64,000 nucleotides of DNA from an uncultured Eggerthellaceae bacterium (GTDB lineage Bacteria > Actinomycetota > Coriobacteriia > Coriobacteriales > Eggerthellaceae): NCBI GenBank assembly GCA_944321455.1, contig CALULI010000006.1, positions 62,001 through 126,000 of the forward strand. Direction: 5' to 3'. Every line of letters begins with the position of its first letter. Positions within the stretch are counted from its first letter, which is position 1. The notes beneath the pieces are model-generated. The model had not been told where the DNA came from. It did no database searches and saw nothing but the letters and a program-made list of their open reading frames with translations. Both the position numbers and the translations under genes were made by a program. Shown here piece by piece: positions 51,369 to 58,639 of the stretch.

Positions 51369-52931
51369 ATGGCTCAAAATACCTTTGCAGAGCGTTTAAA
51401 AGAAGCGCTCGTGGCAAAAAACTATAAACAGGCTGATCTTATTCGCATTGCTGCCGAACGCGGAATCAAGCTGGGTAAGAGTCAGGTAAGTCAGTACGTA
51501 AGCGGCAAAACACTTCCCCGCCACGATGTTGCTTCTTCTTTGGCGCAGATCCTCGACGTGCAAGAAGCATGGCTGTTAGGCAACAGCATTCCTGCCTCTG
51601 CCGAAGGCGAGCACGCAGATTCTTCTGATGCCGCCTCAGGAAAATCCCCTTCCCCACAGACAGCATCCGCTACCACCAATGACCCATCTTCGATTTCAAG
51701 GAGCTCTTCCATGCGTGAATTTAAAAAGTCCTCAAAGCTTGACAACGTACTCTATGACGTCCGCGGACCTGTTGTGGACGAAGCAGCAAAGATGGAAGAA
51801 GCGGGCACCCGCATTCTGAAACTCAACATTGGCAACCCTGCTCCTTTTGGCTTCACCACCCCTGATGAAGTTATCTGGGACATGCGCCAGCAGCTGGCAG
51901 ACTGCCAAGGCTATTCCGATTCGAAGGGTCTTTTTGGTGCACGTAAGGCAATCATGCAGTATGCGCAGCTCAAGCACATTCCTAATGTGACCATGAATGA
52001 TATCTATACGGGAAACGGCGTCAGCGAACTTATTAACATCTGTATGTCAGCATTGTTAGACAACGGTGATGAAATTCTGATTCCGTCCCCTGACTATCCA
52101 CTGTGGACCGCATGCGCAACGCTTGCAGGCGGCAACGTTGTTCACTACATGTGTGACGAACAGGCGGAATGGTACCCCGATATTGATGACATCAAGAAAA
52201 AGATTACCAACCGCACCAAGGCAATTGTCATTATCAACCCCAACAATCCAACGGGTGCGCTCTATCCGCGTGAGCTTCTGGAAGAAATTGTTGAGATTGC
52301 GCGCCAAAACCAGCTGATCATTTTCTCTGACGAAATTTATGATCGCCTTGTTATGGATGGCGAAGAGCACGTATCTATTGCTTCGCTGGCACCTGATCTG
52401 TTCTGCATCACCTTCAGTGGCCTGTCCAAGTCTCACATGATTGCAGGCTTCCGCATTGGTTGGATGATCTTGAGCGGCAATAAAGATTGTGCACGCGATT
52501 ATATCTTGGGTCTCAACATGCTTTCGAACATGCGCCTGTGCTCCAATGTTCCTGCACAGTCCATTGTGCAAACGGCTCTTGGTGGTCATCAGAGCGTTAA
52601 CGACTACATTGTTCCTGGCGGACGCATCTACGAGCAGCGCGAATACGTTATTGATGCGCTCAACAGCATCCCTGGCATTAGCGTTGTGAAACCAAAAGCG
52701 GCATTTTACGCGTTCCCACGCATTGATGCTAAGCGCTTCAATATCACCAACGACGAAAAGTTTGCCTACGATCTGCTGCGCGAAAAGAAGCTGTTGATTG
52801 TTCAAGGCAGCGGCTTCAACTGGGAGCAGCCTGACCACTTCCGCATTGTGTATCTGCCTCGTATTGAGGTGTTGAAGGATGCGATGGACAAGCTGGGTGA
52901 TTTCTTAAGCACGTATCATCAGCGCGCGTAG
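51369..52931 (+). CDS. XRE helix-turn-helix fused to alanine-type aminotransferase; internal start likely
   Basis: This 520-residue fusion has three parts. Residues 1-75 are a Cro/C1-type HTH (FAERLKEALVAKNYKQADLIR... and KSQVSQYVSGKTLPRHDVASSLAQIL). A Ser/Ala/Pro linker spans about 76-112. Residues 115-520 are a complete class I aminotransferase of the AlaA type (NIGNPAPFGF, NPNNPTGALY, SDEIYDRL, PLP lysine K354 in SGLSKSH, GFRIGW). AlaA makes alanine from pyruvate and glutamate. An AAGGAG with a seven-base spacer and ATG lies at 51698-51713, exactly at the start of the enzyme part, so a free 406-residue enzyme may also be made. Unlike MocR fusions, the DNA-binding part is XRE, not GntR. Upstream lies an operator-like array. 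Confidence 0.9.
   Translation: MAQNTFAERLKEALVAKNYKQADLIRIAAERGIKLGKSQVSQYVSGKTLPRHDVASSLAQILDVQEAWLLGNSIPASAEGEHADSSDAASGKSPSPQTASATTNDPSSISRSSSMREFKKSSKLDNVLYDVRGPVVDEAAKMEEAGTRILKLNIGNPAPFGFTTPDEVIWDMRQQLADCQGYSDSKGLFGARKAIMQYAQLKHIPNVTMNDIYTGNGVSELINICMSALLDNGDEILIPSPDYPLWTACATLAGGNVVHYMCDEQAEWYPDIDDIKKKITNRTKAIVIINPNNPTGALYPRELLEEIVEIARQNQLIIFSDEIYDRLVMDGEEHVSIASLAPDLFCITFSGLSKSHMIAGFRIGWMILSGNKDCARDYILGLNMLSNMRLCSNVPAQSIVQTALGGHQSVNDYIVPGGRIYEQREYVIDALNSIPGISVVKPKAAFYAFPRIDAKRFNITNDEKFAYDLLREKKLLIVQGSGFNWEQPDHFRIVYLPRIEVLKDAMDKLGDFLSTYHQRA
51698..51713 (+). promoter_or_regulatory. internal ribosome binding site and start for the aminotransferase part
   Basis: AAGGAG (51698-51703), a seven-base spacer and an in-frame ATG (51711) lie inside the fusion gene. 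The codons that follow are the natural N-terminus of an AlaA-type aminotransferase (MREFKKSSKLDNVLYDVRG). Its strength equals that of real starts in this window, which is unexpected inside a gene. Confidence 0.65.
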
Positions 52932-53024: not shown

Positions 53025-53050
53025 GAACAGCGCTGAACTCAGCGCTGTTC
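53025..53050. terminator. hairpin between convergent aminotransferase and amidase genes
   Basis: Perfect ten-base arms GAACAGCGCT (53025-53034) and AGCGCTGTTC (53041-53050) with a six-base loop, ending at the amidase stop. No long T-tract, so a modest bidirectional terminator. Confidence 0.5.
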
Positions 53051-53853
53051 TATTGTCCGTCGTGGGTGCGATACTGCTGGTAGTTAGCAAGATACGTGGC
53101 AAATTCAGCTGAGGTATCTGAATTACCCGTGCGCCACGCCTTATGGTCAATAATGTCGCTTTCGAAACCATAGTAGGCATCAATGTAGGCAATCAGGGTA
53201 TCCAGCGCTTCAAGCTGTGCAGCAGGATAGTCGGTATCCGTCGCGCCCACATGGACCATCTCAATACCAATAGAATACGAATTCATGCCATAGTCCGATG
53301 CCCATGATCCAATAGGTGTGGTGCCCACCTTGTCATCGCGCGATTCGTCTTCCACTCCATACTGGGCGTTATGACCCGTGTCACCAAAACCAGCGTGATG
53401 GGCAATAGTATCAAGCGGCACGCACTGCACAATGGTTCCATCTTTATTAATAATGAAATGAGCAGCAACGCCTGCCCCATTACCATCCCAGTAATCCACA
53501 ACACCTGCAGCGCTCGTGTTGCTTTCGGTGTCATGCAACACAATGTACTTCTGATAGTCAGCGCCCTTTTCGCCATGAGCAAACGAATCACGATAGTCTT
53601 CTGTGATACTCAGCTGCGCGCGAAGCTCTTCAGCAGTAGGCTCTTGGGGCTCTTCGGGAACCTCTTCAGCAGGCGTGTCATTAACTTCCTGATCAAATGA
53701 CGTGCTCTCTTCTTCTTGCTGATTAGCAGCACAGCCACTCAACGAACACGCCAGCGCACCTGCCACCAGCACCGTACCCAACACAACAAGAATGCGGCGC
53801 ATAACTCCAAAAGAGCTAATACGAAATGAATTCACCTGGTTTTGAGTAAACAC
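53050..53853 (-). CDS. N-acetylmuramoyl-L-alanine amidase, lipoprotein
   Basis: A 267-residue exported lipoprotein: the hydrophobic signal ends in LSGC with the lipid-bearing C41. A Glu/Pro-rich acidic spacer (residues about 47-78) follows, then an Amidase_2/PGRP-fold domain. Zn ligands are in YIVLHDTES and HKAWRTGNSD, with HHAGFG and IGIEMVH in between. It cleaves the amide bond between N-acetylmuramic acid and L-alanine in peptidoglycan. The GTG start has AAGGA eight bases upstream; the in-frame ATG at 53802 has GGAG too close. Convergent with the aminotransferase gene. Confidence 0.88.
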   Translation of the reverse strand: MFTQNQVNSFRISSFGVMRRILVVLGTVLVAGALACSLSGCAANQQEEESTSFDQEVNDTPAEEVPEEPQEPTAEELRAQLSITEDYRDSFAHGEKGADYQKYIVLHDTESNTSAAGVVDYWDGNGAGVAAHFIINKDGTIVQCVPLDTIAHHAGFGDTGHNAQYGVEDESRDDKVGTTPIGSWASDYGMNSYSIGIEMVHVGATDTDYPAAQLEALDTLIAYIDAYYGFESDIIDHKAWRTGNSDTSAEFATYLANYQQYRTHDGQ

Positions 53854-53899: not shown

Positions 53900-53939
53900 G
53901 ATACTACGCAGATCAAAACGATACTACGCAGATCAAAAC
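53900..53939. repeat. 20-base perfect tandem duplication
   Basis: GATACTACGCAGATCAAAAC occurs twice back to back (53900-53919, 53920-53939) in the 252-base space between the divergent amidase and HD-HelD genes. It lies 47 bases upstream of the amidase start and may change promoter spacing or duplicate a regulator site. Confidence 0.8.
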
Positions 53940-54105
53940 AAGCGTTTGACCAAATGAGAGTTTTTCATAAACATCTCTTACCTTTTTTCGCAGCCTTGAA
54001 TAAAGCGCTAGAATGACGTTTGCACTTTAACGCACTTGCTGAAACCAACAGGTGCTCACGGTTGCGCACCACAATAGGCGCTGCGCGTTTGCGTCAGGAG
54101 GAACT

Positions 54106-57100
54106 ATGGTAATTGATAGATCACAGGCTCTTGAACGGTTCAAAGCCTACACGTCGCACTACGATCCTCAAAACCACAAGATCGCCCTTAAAATTGATCA
54201 TTCCCTGCGCACGGCTGCCTTGAGTGAGCGCATCGCGCAAAGCCTTGATCTTTCTGCCGAAGATGTAGACTTGGCATGGCTTTGTGGCTTGCTGCATGAC
54301 ATTGGGCGCTTTGAGCAAATTCGTCGCTGGAATACGTTTAGCGACGCTAAATCTACCAGCCATGCTCAGCTCAGTGTTGACGTTTTATTTGAAGCCCCTT
54401 CAGCTGATATGTTTGATACAGCCACTGTTGCGGGTTCATCCGATGTCACTGCTGCGTCTGAAACGCATGGCTCAGCTGACACCACCCACGAAACACCGCT
54501 CATCCGCACCTATGTGGCAGACAATTCTGAAGACAACCTTATTAAAGCAGTCGTTGGTCTTCATGGCGTCTTTCGTCTACCTGAGGGGTTAGATGCGCGC
54601 ACCAAGCAATTCTGCGACATCATTCGCGACGCTGACAAACTAGATATCCTGCACACCATCACCATCAATACGCCGTTTGATCTGTTTGGGGCAACGGATG
54701 AAGAATTCCGCGCAAGCACCCTTTCTGTTGAGGCGAAGCAGGCGTTTTACGACCATTGCTGCCTCCAAAAGTACGAGCGCCACTACCCTGCAGACTATCT
54801 GATTGGCTTTTTGTGCTTTGCCTATGAGTTGGTCTATCCCGAAAGCTTGCATATTGTTGCCGAAGATGGCTATTTGATGCAGCTGTTTACTGCTCCGTTT
54901 GGGCTGACCTTTACCAACACAGACACCGCCGAAGAAATCATGGTGATGCACCAACACATGCGCCATTGGCTCTCTGGCGAAATTGCAAAATCGGACCCCA
55001 TCTTTGATGCCGAACAGCAGCATCTCACACAAACCTACGAAACCCTTCACGCCATGGAGCTTTCCTTGGCACGCGCCATCCAAAAGACCGCCGAAGAGGC
55101 AGCGGCCGATAAAGAAAGCATGGCAGAAGAGGTAACCGCGAACTTCAGCAGCTATGGCGAAGCGCAAGAAACGTATATTGACTACGCGGTTATTAACAAC
55201 GTCATTCAGGCTTACAACCTTCTTCAAGACGCTCAGACTCAAAAGCTCAACGACGTAGCGCTTTTACTTAAGCAGCCTTACTTCGCCAAGATTGCGCTGC
55301 GCTTCAAGGAAGGCCAGGAACCTAAGGAACTCTATCTTGGCAGCACGGGATTGTCTGACGAATCCTACAAGCGCCTGGTGGTTGACTGGCGATCTCCTGT
55401 GGCTGAGGTCTACTACAACCAAGTTAATGGACCCACGTCATACGTTGCCAACGGACGCACCATCAACGTTGATTTGGTGCTGCGCCGCCAGTTCGATATC
55501 ACGCGCGACCACCTCAATGCGTACTTTGACACTAACATTGCCATCCAAGACGAACTCTTGCTGGATTCGCTTTCAAAGCAGCGCGGCGCCCACATGCAGG
55601 CCATTACCGCTACCATCCAGAAAGAACAGAACGAAGTGATTCGCTACGATGACGTGCCAGCCCTTTTGGTGGCAGGTATTGCGGGCAGTGGTAAAACGTC
55701 GGTGCTGCTTCAGCGCATTGCCTATCTGTTCTACCAGCAGCGCGAAACGCTGGATGCTTCTGAGATCTACCTGATTACGCCCAACGACGTGTTCCGCACC
55801 TACATCAATAACGTGTTGCCTGATTTGGGCGAAAAGAATCCGCGTTCCTATACGTGGACGGAGTTCGAAGATTATCTGATGCCCGCCAACCACAACCGTG
55901 GCATGGCATCAATTGATCTGGAAACGTTCAGGCAGATTGATAAAGCGGTCGCTTCGTTTACCTTTGAAACGAAGGACTTTAAGGAACTTATTGTGGGTGA
56001 TCGCCGTCTGTTCTCCAGCGCTCAAATCCACAAGATTGTCGATAAGTTTTCGCACCTTCCCGCAGGACCGCACCTGGTAACGCTGGTGCGCGAAGAAATG
56101 CTGAAGCGTCTTGATAAACGCATCACACAGCTTTCTGCTGAAGAGAGCATCATCAACGAAATCATGGCGCTTGATGTTAACGAGCAGCTGCGTCTATTCC
56201 ATGAAACAGTCGATCCGCAAGATGACGAAGAAGCACGCGCCTATGCGCTTGTGTACTTGAAGGACCTGTTTGCGCCTGCTCTTCGCATTATTGAACGTGA
56301 CGAATGGCTGCGCATGGACCGCATTGGCATGCGTCTGCTGGGGAAAGAAAGTTTGCTGCCCGTTGAGTGGCTGTACTTGAAAATTGCTATCACAGGCATG
56401 GGTAATCCAAGCGCTAAGTATGTCATGGTTGATGAAGTGCAGGATTATTCGGCAGCTCAGCTTATTATCTTGGCGCGTTATTTCAGACGTGCTCACTTCT
56501 TGTTGTTGGGTGACGAAAATCAGGCCATCAAAGACGGCACGGCAACCTTTGACGATATTCGTGAAATTTTCACCGCCGAACGTGGCGGTATGGACACCTG
56601 CCGTTTGCTGACCAGCTATCGCTCTTCACCTGAAATTACCGACCTGTTTGCAAGCCTTGCTAACACTCGCGAAGGCGTGACCATATCTTCCATTCAGCGC
56701 CCTGGCATTAATCCTGTACTGTTTGCGTGCGAATCAGAAGAGGACCACCTTGCGCGCTTGAGTGAGGTTATTGAAGATGCGCAGGCGCACGTGGGCTTGA
56801 CGGCTATCATTGTGCCACACACGTATCTGGCAAAGCGCTATGTCAAAAAGATGAATGAAACCAACGCGCTGGAAAACAACACTCCTGCGATTATCGAAAA
56901 CTATGATCGCTTGCCTGATAAAGGTGTCTTCTTTGTAAGTTTGGCGCTGGCGAAAGGTTTGGAGTTTGACCACGTGGTTATCCCTGACGTAAGCGCCCAG
57001 GTGTTTGACGAAAGCGATCTGGCCCGCCACCAGCTCTACACCACCATCTCGCGCGCAACCCGCAAGGTAACGCTTCTTTCCCGCGGAGCCGTCACGCCTT

Positions 57101-57135
57101 TGCTTGATGGAGTGCTGGAACCAACCATCAACTAA
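54106..57135 (+). CDS. HD-domain phosphohydrolase fused to HelD-type helicase/RNA polymerase recycling motor
   Basis: One 1009-residue frame. Residues about 1-250 are an HD domain (H32, then LLHDIGRFE with H64-D65, IIRDADKLDIL), of the metal-dependent nucleotide phosphohydrolase type. From about 330 a HelD-like UvrD superfamily helicase follows: the family signature DWRSPVAEVYYN (427-438), Walker A GIAGSGKTS (K530), Walker B VDEVQDY (D776-E777), SYRSSPEI, and the C-terminal motif LAKGLEFDHVVIPD with TTISRATRKV. HelD frees stalled RNA polymerase from DNA. Its N-terminal coiled-coil arm (DKESMAEEVTANFSS region) is shorter than in Bacillus. ATG with AGGAGG four bases upstream. I know no named HD-HelD fusion. 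Confidence 0.88.
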   Translation: MVIDRSQALERFKAYTSHYDPQNHKIALKIDHSLRTAALSERIAQSLDLSAEDVDLAWLCGLLHDIGRFEQIRRWNTFSDAKSTSHAQLSVDVLFEAPSADMFDTATVAGSSDVTAASETHGSADTTHETPLIRTYVADNSEDNLIKAVVGLHGVFRLPEGLDARTKQFCDIIRDADKLDILHTITINTPFDLFGATDEEFRASTLSVEAKQAFYDHCCLQKYERHYPADYLIGFLCFAYELVYPESLHIVAEDGYLMQLFTAPFGLTFTNTDTAEEIMVMHQHMRHWLSGEIAKSDPIFDAEQQHLTQTYETLHAMELSLARAIQKTAEEAAADKESMAEEVTANFSSYGEAQETYIDYAVINNVIQAYNLLQDAQTQKLNDVALLLKQPYFAKIALRFKEGQEPKELYLGSTGLSDESYKRLVVDWRSPVAEVYYNQVNGPTSYVANGRTINVDLVLRRQFDITRDHLNAYFDTNIAIQDELLLDSLSKQRGAHMQAITATIQKEQNEVIRYDDVPALLVAGIAGSGKTSVLLQRIAYLFYQQRETLDASEIYLITPNDVFRTYINNVLPDLGEKNPRSYTWTEFEDYLMPANHNRGMASIDLETFRQIDKAVASFTFETKDFKELIVGDRRLFSSAQIHKIVDKFSHLPAGPHLVTLVREEMLKRLDKRITQLSAEESIINEIMALDVNEQLRLFHETVDPQDDEEARAYALVYLKDLFAPALRIIERDEWLRMDRIGMRLLGKESLLPVEWLYLKIAITGMGNPSAKYVMVDEVQDYSAAQLIILARYFRRAHFLLLGDENQAIKDGTATFDDIREIFTAERGGMDTCRLLTSYRSSPEITDLFASLANTREGVTISSIQRPGINPVLFACESEEDHLARLSEVIEDAQAHVGLTAIIVPHTYLAKRYVKKMNETNALENNTPAIIENYDRLPDKGVFFVSLALAKGLEFDHVVIPDVSAQVFDESDLARHQLYTTISRATRKVTLLSRGAVTPLLDGVLEPTIN

Positions 57136-57268: not shown

Positions 57269-58615
57269 TTATTCGCCTTCCCCATTATGAAGCGCCTCAA
57301 ACTTGGCCTTCATGGTGGGGTTGTTTTTCGTGAGCTTCTTAATGGTGAGCGCTTCGGCTTTATCGTTAGCAAGACGCAGATTGTTTTCGCTGCCGATCAA
57401 AGCTTCTTTGGTCTTCATCAAGTGGTCGATCGTCTTGTCAATTTCTTCAATTGCCTTGCGGAATTTATCACTCGCAAGACGGTAGTTACGACCAAACTTC
57501 TGCTTGAAGTCGTCCATTTCTTCTTCGAAATGCGTGATGTCAATGTTTTGCTGGCGAACCATTGCAAGCTCTTGCTTATACGCAAGCGAATTGAGTGCGG
57601 CGTTGCGCAAAATACTGATCAACGGAATGAAAAACTGCGGACGAATGACATACATCTTGTCATAGCGGTAGGACATATCAACAATACCCGTGTTGTAAAG
57701 TTCGTTGTCAGGCTCCAAAAGCGTAACCAACACCGCATACTCACATTTCTTTTTCGTGCGGTCAGAATCAAGCTTTTTCAAGAAGTCTTCGTTTTTATGC
57801 TTATGCGTTGAATCATCCTGTTCGTTTTTCATTTCAAACATGATTGAGATAATTTCGTTACCCGCTTCATCTTCTTCGCGGAAAATGTAGTCGCCTTTGC
57901 TGCCCTGAGAAACATCATTGTCCTTTTCGAAATATGCATGAGGAAATGCCGTGGCGCGCAAGCGATTAAATTCAATTTCACAGTGCTGCTCCAACGATTC
58001 GCCCAGCATCTTGGTAGACAGACGAGCCTTCATGTCGCGATAGCGCTCAATTTCCTGTTCCTTATAGGCAATCATTTCATCCTTGGCGCGCAACTTTTCA
58101 GACATCTGAACCTTGAGTTCATTTTCCATTTGGTTTTTTTCGGCCTCTTTAATCTTGAGCTGCGAAGCAAGCGAATCGCGCTCTTTTTCAAGCGCCGTCT
58201 TTGCTTGCGTTACCGCTAGCTGCTTTTCTGTATCAAAAGCAGCACGCTCAGATTCAAATGCCTGGGCTTGGGTGGAATACTTCATTTCATAGGTCTGCTT
58301 CTGGGCAGCGTATTCGGCATCAAACGCTTGCTTTTGGGCTTTTTGTTCGGCCTTGAATGTTTGCTGCTGAGCCGCTAGCTGCTGCTCAAGTTCAGCAATG
58401 CGTGCCTGCGTTTGTGTCAGCTCTTTTTCCAAAGAGCTTTTTGTATCAGCAATGGCAAGTTTGACAGCCTGGTCCTTTTCAACCTTCATCATCTGCTGTC
58501 GCTGTTCAATTTCATGAGCGAATTCTTTATCGCGAACCTGCTTCACAATGGCCGAAAAGCCCGATTCATCAACTTGAAAGACTGTTCCGCAATGAGGGCA
58601 TTTTATTTCGTTCAC
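57269..58615 (-). CDS. DUF2130 coiled-coil protein with zinc-ribbon start
   Basis: A 448-residue protein of the DUF2130 family. [16 protein letters not shown] at the start resembles half of a zinc ribbon. A long Gln/Lys/Glu-rich coiled coil (about residues 30-190, including [24 protein letters not shown]) leads to the conserved core ([47 protein letters not shown]). The core has D...E-x-K spacing like a PD-(D/E)xK nuclease, which has been suggested for the family, but no activity is proven. GTG start chosen with AAGG; a GTG three codons earlier is possible. Follows the C1 protease gene by 24 bases. Confidence 0.82.
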
Positions 58616-58639
58616 GTCTACCACCTTAATACGTGTTGC

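What the first reader, a model, noticed from the sequence alone, without database searches (positions are those of the whole stretch)
54106..57135. HD phosphohydrolase fused to a HelD-type RNA polymerase recycling motor
Seen: one uninterrupted frame with an HD domain (H32, H64, D65 and a later IIRDADK) and then a full HelD helicase with DWRSPVAEVYYN, Walker A and B and late helicase motifs. Known: HelD clears stalled RNA polymerase, and HD domains cleave nucleotides such as dNTPs, cyclic dinucleotides or (p)ppGpp-like molecules. Inference: the fusion could couple a nucleotide signal or nucleotide clearance to transcription recycling. The HD part could also be a toxin-like or alarmone-hydrolase module. 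I cannot name a characterised protein of this build.
Basis: partly seen in the sequence, partly recalled or inferred. Interest (0 to 1): 0.75.

Follow-up and report, generated by a model that had tools for sequence, protein, structure and literature searches.

The report
One-off HD hydrolase–HelD protein fusion
In one actinobacterium of the order Coriobacteriales, the gene for a metal-dependent phosphate-cutting enzyme has become joined, with no gap, to the gene for HelD, a motor that rescues stuck RNA polymerase; both halves look intact, but the join was found in none of the other genomes searched, so whether the halves work together is unknown.

Summary
In detail: window 54106-57135 (+) is one open frame of 1009 aa with an HD domain (1-~290) and a complete class I-type HelD (~296-1009). 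Profiles, PDB sequence matches and AlphaFold models agree on both halves. The HD half keeps every residue invariant in 30 homologues and the full two-metal "H…HD…H…H…D" signature (H32, H64, D65, H86, H153, D177). The HelD half keeps 143 of 147 near-invariant positions. The junction is scarless, at the natural end of one protein and the natural start of the other; HD hangs from the base of HelD's secondary-channel arm by a short low-confidence hinge. In 397 Coriobacteriales genomes, 252 have HelD, 108 have this HD family and 56 have both; only this genome shows the fusion, and none of 56 HD loci examined contains helD. The HD copy groups with a stand-alone HD gene of the same genus, so the fusion is probably young. 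Best reading: a real, lineage-specific two-enzyme fusion. Coupling of nucleotide hydrolysis to RNA polymerase recycling is not excluded, but comparative genomics does not support it; the alarmone-hydrolase and toxin readings lack evidence. New variant of a known kind; moderate interest.

The parts
54106..57135 (+). fusion gene, 1009 aa, HD phosphohydrolase + HelD
   Evidence: uninterrupted frame; Pfam/NCBIfam/PDB matches
54096..54101 (+). ribosome-binding site AGGAGG shortly before ATG 54106
   Evidence: sequence
54106..54975 (+). HD domain, residues 1-290 (AF2 pLDDT 91)
   Evidence: Pfam HD E 9e-10; model and PDB matches 2pq7 Z 14.9, YpgQ Z 13.8; 30 homologues aligned
54199..54201 (+). H32, predicted metal ligand
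   Evidence: nearly invariant (90% or more) in 31 rows; invariant in 9
54295..54300 (+). H64-D65, HD motif
   Evidence: invariant
54361..54363 (+). H86, predicted ligand of a second metal
   Evidence: invariant
54562..54564 (+). H153, predicted ligand of a second metal
   Evidence: invariant
54634..54636 (+). D177 in RDADK, predicted metal ligand
   Evidence: invariant
54976..54996 (+). junction/hinge, residues 291-297; no start codon with a strong ribosome-binding site here
   Evidence: pLDDT under 50 at 293-297; sequence
54997..55272 (+). secondary-channel-arm coiled coil of HelD (helices 298-343 and 350-389; tip near S348-E352)
   Evidence: full-length model; aligned to B. subtilis HelD
55384..55398 (+). 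DWRSP motif (residues 427-431), HelD hallmark without the class III insertion
   Evidence: PMC8655204
55684..55698 (+). Walker A GSGKT (residues 527-531)
56431..56445 (+). Walker B / motif II DEVQD (residues 776-780)
54976..57132 (+). HelD part, residues 291-1009
   Evidence: model residues 296-1007 align to 6wvk_H 4-769, Z 17.6, 572 aligned, rmsd 16; 143/147 near-invariant HelD columns kept

Best explanation
This is a real, young, lineage-specific gene fusion. It makes one polypeptide with two complete enzymes: an HD-superfamily metal-dependent phosphohydrolase (residues 1-290) and a class I-type HelD RNA polymerase recycling motor (296-1009). Inferred workings: the HelD half pushes its arm into the RNA polymerase secondary channel and uses ATP to clear nucleic acids from stalled polymerase, as in B. 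subtilis. The HD half keeps a two-metal active site and hydrolyses a nucleotide-type phosphoanhydride or phosphoester; the substrate is unknown. HD is tethered to the outer (base) end of the first arm helix by a flexible hinge, so it would ride at or near the mouth of the secondary channel. Shown: the frame, the domain identities, intact motifs, scarless junction and rarity. Inferred: both catalytic activities and the placement on RNA polymerase. Not shown: that one activity controls the other; comparative data favour a fusion that merely co-expresses the two enzymes.
For: One frame from one strong ribosome-binding site; no strong internal one at the junction. HD and HelD profile and PDB matches. 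HD model pLDDT 91, nearest solved folds 2pq7 and B. subtilis YpgQ. H...HD...H...H...D residues kept: H64, D65, H86, H153, D177 invariant and H32 nearly so in 31 rows. HelD half keeps 143/147 near-invariant columns and aligns with 6wvk_H 4-769. The full-length model puts HD before helix 298-343, whose far end is the arm tip, with a pLDDT < 50 hinge at 293-297. The fusion holds the genome's only HelD and only detected copy of this HD family. The HD sequence is sister to the stand-alone HD gene of congener G003 (95/90 support).
Against: Neither activity is tested. One genome only; no second strain was available to confirm the join. The full-length model has pTM 0.46, so the HD orientation is not determined. 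The HelD match is below NCBIfam's equivalog cut-off, but no genome of the genus exceeded it.
Confidence: 0.72

Rival explanations
1. Functional coupling: the HD enzyme, held at the secondary-channel mouth (the NTP entry pore), clears or senses a nucleotide there, or HelD docking switches HD on, so that a nucleotide signal and polymerase recycling act together.
For: The model places HD at the outer base of the secondary-channel arm. Both active sites are kept. The fusion holds the genome's only copies of both. A NUDIX nucleotide hydrolase gene lies 74 bp upstream of helD on a Butyrivibrio plasmid, a single anecdote.
Against: No HelD in 56 HD loci; co-occurrence 56 versus 68.6 expected; only one fusion. 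The same HD family is fused to an unrelated SDR-like protein elsewhere.
Confidence: 0.2
2. Assembly or base-calling error joins two adjacent genes, or two distant pieces, into one frame.
For: No relative examined has the two genes together; no reads or second strain available.
Against: The junction lies at the exact end of HD and start of HelD, in frame, inside a 523-kb contig of a 99.7% complete genome; a random chimera would not be expected to land there. A miscalled stop would still require the otherwise unseen adjacency.
Confidence: 0.04
3. The HD half is a (p)ppGpp hydrolase of the SpoT kind, or a toxin-like module.
For: SpoT's hydrolase is also an HD fold; secondary-channel factors and ppGpp act on the same enzyme (general knowledge).
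Against: SpoT HD is mononuclear H...HD...D (PMC8177086), whereas this family carries two further invariant histidines. A Rel structure appears only as a weak Foldseek hit (rank 43, E 1.6). No antitoxin-like partner: the gene stands alone between divergent and convergent neighbours.
Confidence: 0.06
4. The HD half binds a nucleotide or metal as a sensor or scaffold and no longer catalyses.
For: Only that activity is unproven.
Against: All columns invariant in the homologues, metal ligands included, are kept.
Confidence: 0.1

Closest known systems
HelD class I (B. subtilis HelD, PDB 6WVK/6ZCA; Coriobacterial HelDs)
   Same: Collinear from residue 4 of B. subtilis HelD to near its end; DWR[A/S]P, Walker A/B and late motifs kept; long arm coiled coil.
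   Different: Carries a 290-residue HD enzyme before the arm. The arm tip lacks B. subtilis D56/D57 (S348/S349 here); only E60 is matched (E352). Most sampled Eggerthellaceae HelDs also lack acids in those two columns.
Stand-alone Coriobacterial HD proteins (about 255-320 aa), e.g. G003 C7:713-1594
   Same: Full-length homology (37-51% identity), same metal-ligand set, same C-terminal helix; G003's is the sister sequence.
   Different: Not fused; varied gene neighbours; a divergent subgroup is fused to an SDR-like protein instead.
B. subtilis YpgQ (Mn-dependent (d)NTP pyrophosphohydrolase)
   Same: Among the nearest solved folds: Z 13.8, rmsd 3.8, 180 residues.
   Different: 12% identity; YpgQ is mononuclear H...HD...D (PMC8177086) and lacks the two further histidines of the dinuclear signature.
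YqeK (Ap4A hydrolase)
   Same: Extended H...HD...H...H...D dinuclear signature (PMC8177086); YqeK structure 2o08 found at Z 10.7.
   Different: Rmsd 6.3 to 2o08; no TIGR00488 match listed for the fusion, and the genome has a separate YqeK.

Membership tests
HelD (RNA polymerase recycling motor, class I-type) | DWR[A/S]P motif without the class III insertion | tested here: met
   DWRSP at 427-431; class definition from PMC8655204
HelD (RNA polymerase recycling motor, class I-type) | Walker A lysine and SF1 helicase motifs | tested here: met
   GSGKT 527-531, DEVQD 776-780; 143/147 near-invariant columns kept
HelD (RNA polymerase recycling motor, class I-type) | long N-terminal arm coiled coil for the secondary channel | tested here: met
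   helices 298-343 and 350-389 in the model; aligned to 6wvk_H from residue 4
B. subtilis HelD equivalog (NCBIfam NF041464) | score above the curated cut-off | tested here: not met
   348 bits versus 419; none of the 4 genomes of the genus reaches it, so it marks divergence of the Coriobacterial branch. Claimed here as a HelD homologue of class I type, not as the BACSU equivalog
HelD (RNA polymerase recycling motor, class I-type) | binds RNA polymerase and releases nucleic acids with ATP | not testable with these tools
   needs biochemistry
HD metal-dependent phosphohydrolase superfamily | HD fold with H...HD...D ligands | tested here: met
   Pfam HD above gathering cut-off (39.3 vs 22 bits); model; H32, H64, D65, D177
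Dinuclear HD phosphatase (YqeK-like signature) | H...HD...H...H...D | tested here: met
   H86 and H153 invariant in 31 rows; rule from PMC8177086
YqeK proper | TIGR00488 match | tested here: not met
   no TIGR00488 match listed at E up to 1 for the fusion or at E up to 0.01 for the HD half; a separate YqeK over cut-off is at G000 C3:97317-97835
HD-GYP / cyclic-nucleotide-type HD phosphodiesterase | H...HD...H...HH...D | tested here: not met
   H153 is followed by G here and S in most homologues, not H
SpoT/RelA (p)ppGpp hydrolase | mononuclear site without the extra histidines | tested here: not met
   two further invariant histidines
SpoT/RelA (p)ppGpp hydrolase | hydrolyses (p)ppGpp | not testable with these tools
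   needs an assay

The most novel reading that the evidence does not exclude
A nucleotide hydrolase permanently carried on an RNA polymerase recycling factor, sitting at the NTP-entry pore of the polymerase, so that clearing a nucleotide and clearing a stalled polymerase are one event: a direct link between nucleotide metabolism and transcription rescue that I could not find described.
Probability: 0.15. Interest if true: 0.7.

Novelty: new variant of a known kind. Interest (0 to 1): 0.36.

Why it matters
No HelD carrying an extra enzyme domain was found in the HelD survey read here or in the collections searched. If the halves are coupled, the protein would reveal a nucleotide that matters when polymerase stalls. 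If they are not, it is a clean example of how HelD tolerates an N-terminal 33-kDa domain, which itself constrains how HelD docks on RNA polymerase.

Tried and rejected
Search for the fusion elsewhere: genome contigs (80 HelD loci kept, none with HD), order and phylum samples, plasmids and phages (HelD matches begin at residue 289 or later in the listed rows; one HD-only match in the phage collection, 31.6% identity), viral contigs (and an exact junction 36-mer): no second fusion. Firmicutes whole genomes could not be centred on. HD-helD operon idea: tblastn of HelD against 56 HD loci (356 kb) found nothing. Conserved gene neighbourhood of HelD in Coriobacteria: none useful; spurious frames on the opposite strand of high-GC DNA obscure the table. 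The pth-HD-mfd-like neighbourhood in genus g27 (Pth and Mfd recognised by eye only) looked suggestive of an RNA polymerase link, but pth-mfd is a common pairing (from memory) and HD's neighbours differ elsewhere; set aside. Promoter scan upstream: no more hits than in shuffled sequence. Mixed HD+HelD alignments first misaligned one half; the one used for the full-length model aligned both.

Full report
The observation. Window 54106-57135 (+) is one open frame of 1009 codons starting just behind AGGAGG. It stands alone between a divergent amidase-like gene (53050-53853, -) and a convergent gene (57269-58624, -). Pfam finds an HD domain at 30-134 (E 9e-10) and helicase domains from 505 on. NCBIfam finds HelD_BACSU from residue 300 (E 8e-104, 348 bits against a cut-off of 419), and PDB sequences give B. 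subtilis and M. smegmatis HelD.

The HD half. Thirty homologues from Coriobacteriales align along residues 1-290 at 37-51% identity. H64, D65, H86, H153 and D177 are invariant and H32 nearly so. This is the extended H…HD…H…H…D set that a review of the superfamily uses to diagnose a dinuclear metal site (PMC8177086), rather than the mononuclear set of SpoT or YpgQ or the H…HD…H…HH…D set of HD phosphodiesterases. An AlphaFold2 model (pLDDT 91; the only long low-confidence stretch is 105-126) is all helical. Foldseek finds no match at E <= 0.001, but structural alignment of its candidates places the model with 2pq7 (Z 14.9, rmsd 4.0, 165 residues) and B. subtilis YpgQ (Z 13.8, rmsd 3.8, 180 residues). 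These Z values are only modestly above the level that mostly helical models can reach by chance, so the assignment rests mainly on the HD profile and motif. The substrate cannot be read from this. The genome has a separate YqeK, so this is not its Ap4A hydrolase of that family.

The HelD half. Residues 296-1007 align with residues 4-769 of B. subtilis HelD in the complex with RNA polymerase (Z 17.6, 572 residues, rmsd 16; the large rmsd probably reflects domain orientation and low-confidence torso regions). It keeps 143 of 147 columns that are near-invariant among 38 sampled HelDs. The DWRSP motif has no class III insertion, and Coriobacterial HelDs were placed in class I by a published survey that attributes them to transfer from Firmicutes (PMC8655204). 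In a tree the HelD half falls among Eggerthellaceae HelDs (fork of 18 rows with SH-aLRT 99), while the HelDs of two congeners (G001, G002) lie in another clade.

The junction. Stand-alone HD proteins end at about the equivalent of residue 290, and the HelD homology begins at about 296. No start codon with a strong ribosome-binding site lies at the join, although in-frame ATG/GTG codons occur at 279-285. In the full-length model (pLDDT 77, pTM 0.46) the HD's last long helix ends at 290, residues 293-297 are under pLDDT 50, and the first arm helix runs 298-343 to a tip at 344-349. HD therefore hangs from the outer end of the arm, not from its tip. From the published complexes (PMC7749165, PMC7749167) I infer that this end lies outside the secondary channel; whether a 33-kDa domain fits there without clashing was not computed.

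Census. In 397 Coriobacteriales genomes HelD occurs in 252 and the HD family in 108; 56 have both, against 68.6 expected if independent. Only the window's genome has a fused frame. None of 56 HD loci (356 kb; overlapping stretches of the same genomes included) contains HelD, and none of 80 HelD loci from genome contigs contains the HD. The phylum sample (396 genomes) adds nothing outside the order. Plasmid and phage collections show HelD matches without HD. The genome has a single HelD and a single detected member of this HD family, so the fusion holds the only copy of each. The HD sequence groups with the stand-alone HD of a congener (95/90), so the fusion is probably younger than the genus. 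The same HD family is also fused to an NAD-epimerase-like protein in another genus, which suggests it can fuse with unrelated partners.

Reading. Shown: one frame, two complete and constrained domains, a scarless junction, great rarity. Inferred: both activities, and placement of HD near the secondary-channel mouth. Not shown: coupling. The lack of co-occurrence, adjacency or a second fusion weighs against a long-standing functional partnership but does not exclude one arising here. An assembly fault is unlikely because the join lies exactly at both protein borders inside a 523-kb contig, but only reads can settle it.

Literature. The HelD survey contains no mention of fusions or extensions, and full-text searches combining HelD or RNA polymerase recycling with HD domain returned nothing relevant. 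The library holds open-licence papers only, so absence there is weak evidence.

Noticed in passing
window 53900-53939: Perfect 20-bp tandem duplication (GATACTACGCAGATCAAAAC twice), 166 bp before the start codon of the fusion; no other copy in the window. Could be a regulatory site or a slippage scar.
   Followed up: partly
L142 3411-6055: On Butyrivibrio plasmid pNP243 a NUDIX hydrolase gene lies 74 bp upstream of helD, another nucleotide hydrolase beside a HelD.
   Followed up: no
L161 (G209 C38:33362-34141); similar open-frame lengths in G204 and G214: A divergent member of the same HD family forms the C-terminal half of a ~600-aa protein whose N-terminal half looks, by eye, like an NAD-dependent epimerase/SDR.
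   Followed up: partly
window 55147-55161 (residues 348-352): The HelD arm tip here, and in most sampled Eggerthellaceae HelDs, lacks the D56/D57 pair that, with E60, was tied to rifampicin protection in B. subtilis (PMC12802891); here only the E60 position is acidic.
   Followed up: partly
L105, L106 (genus g27): The stand-alone HD gene lies in a pth/mfd-like neighbourhood (recognised by eye), next to another RNA polymerase-acting translocase.
   Followed up: no
window 51369-52931: Aminotransferase with an N-terminal helix-turn-helix-like region in one 520-aa frame (by eye).
   Followed up: no
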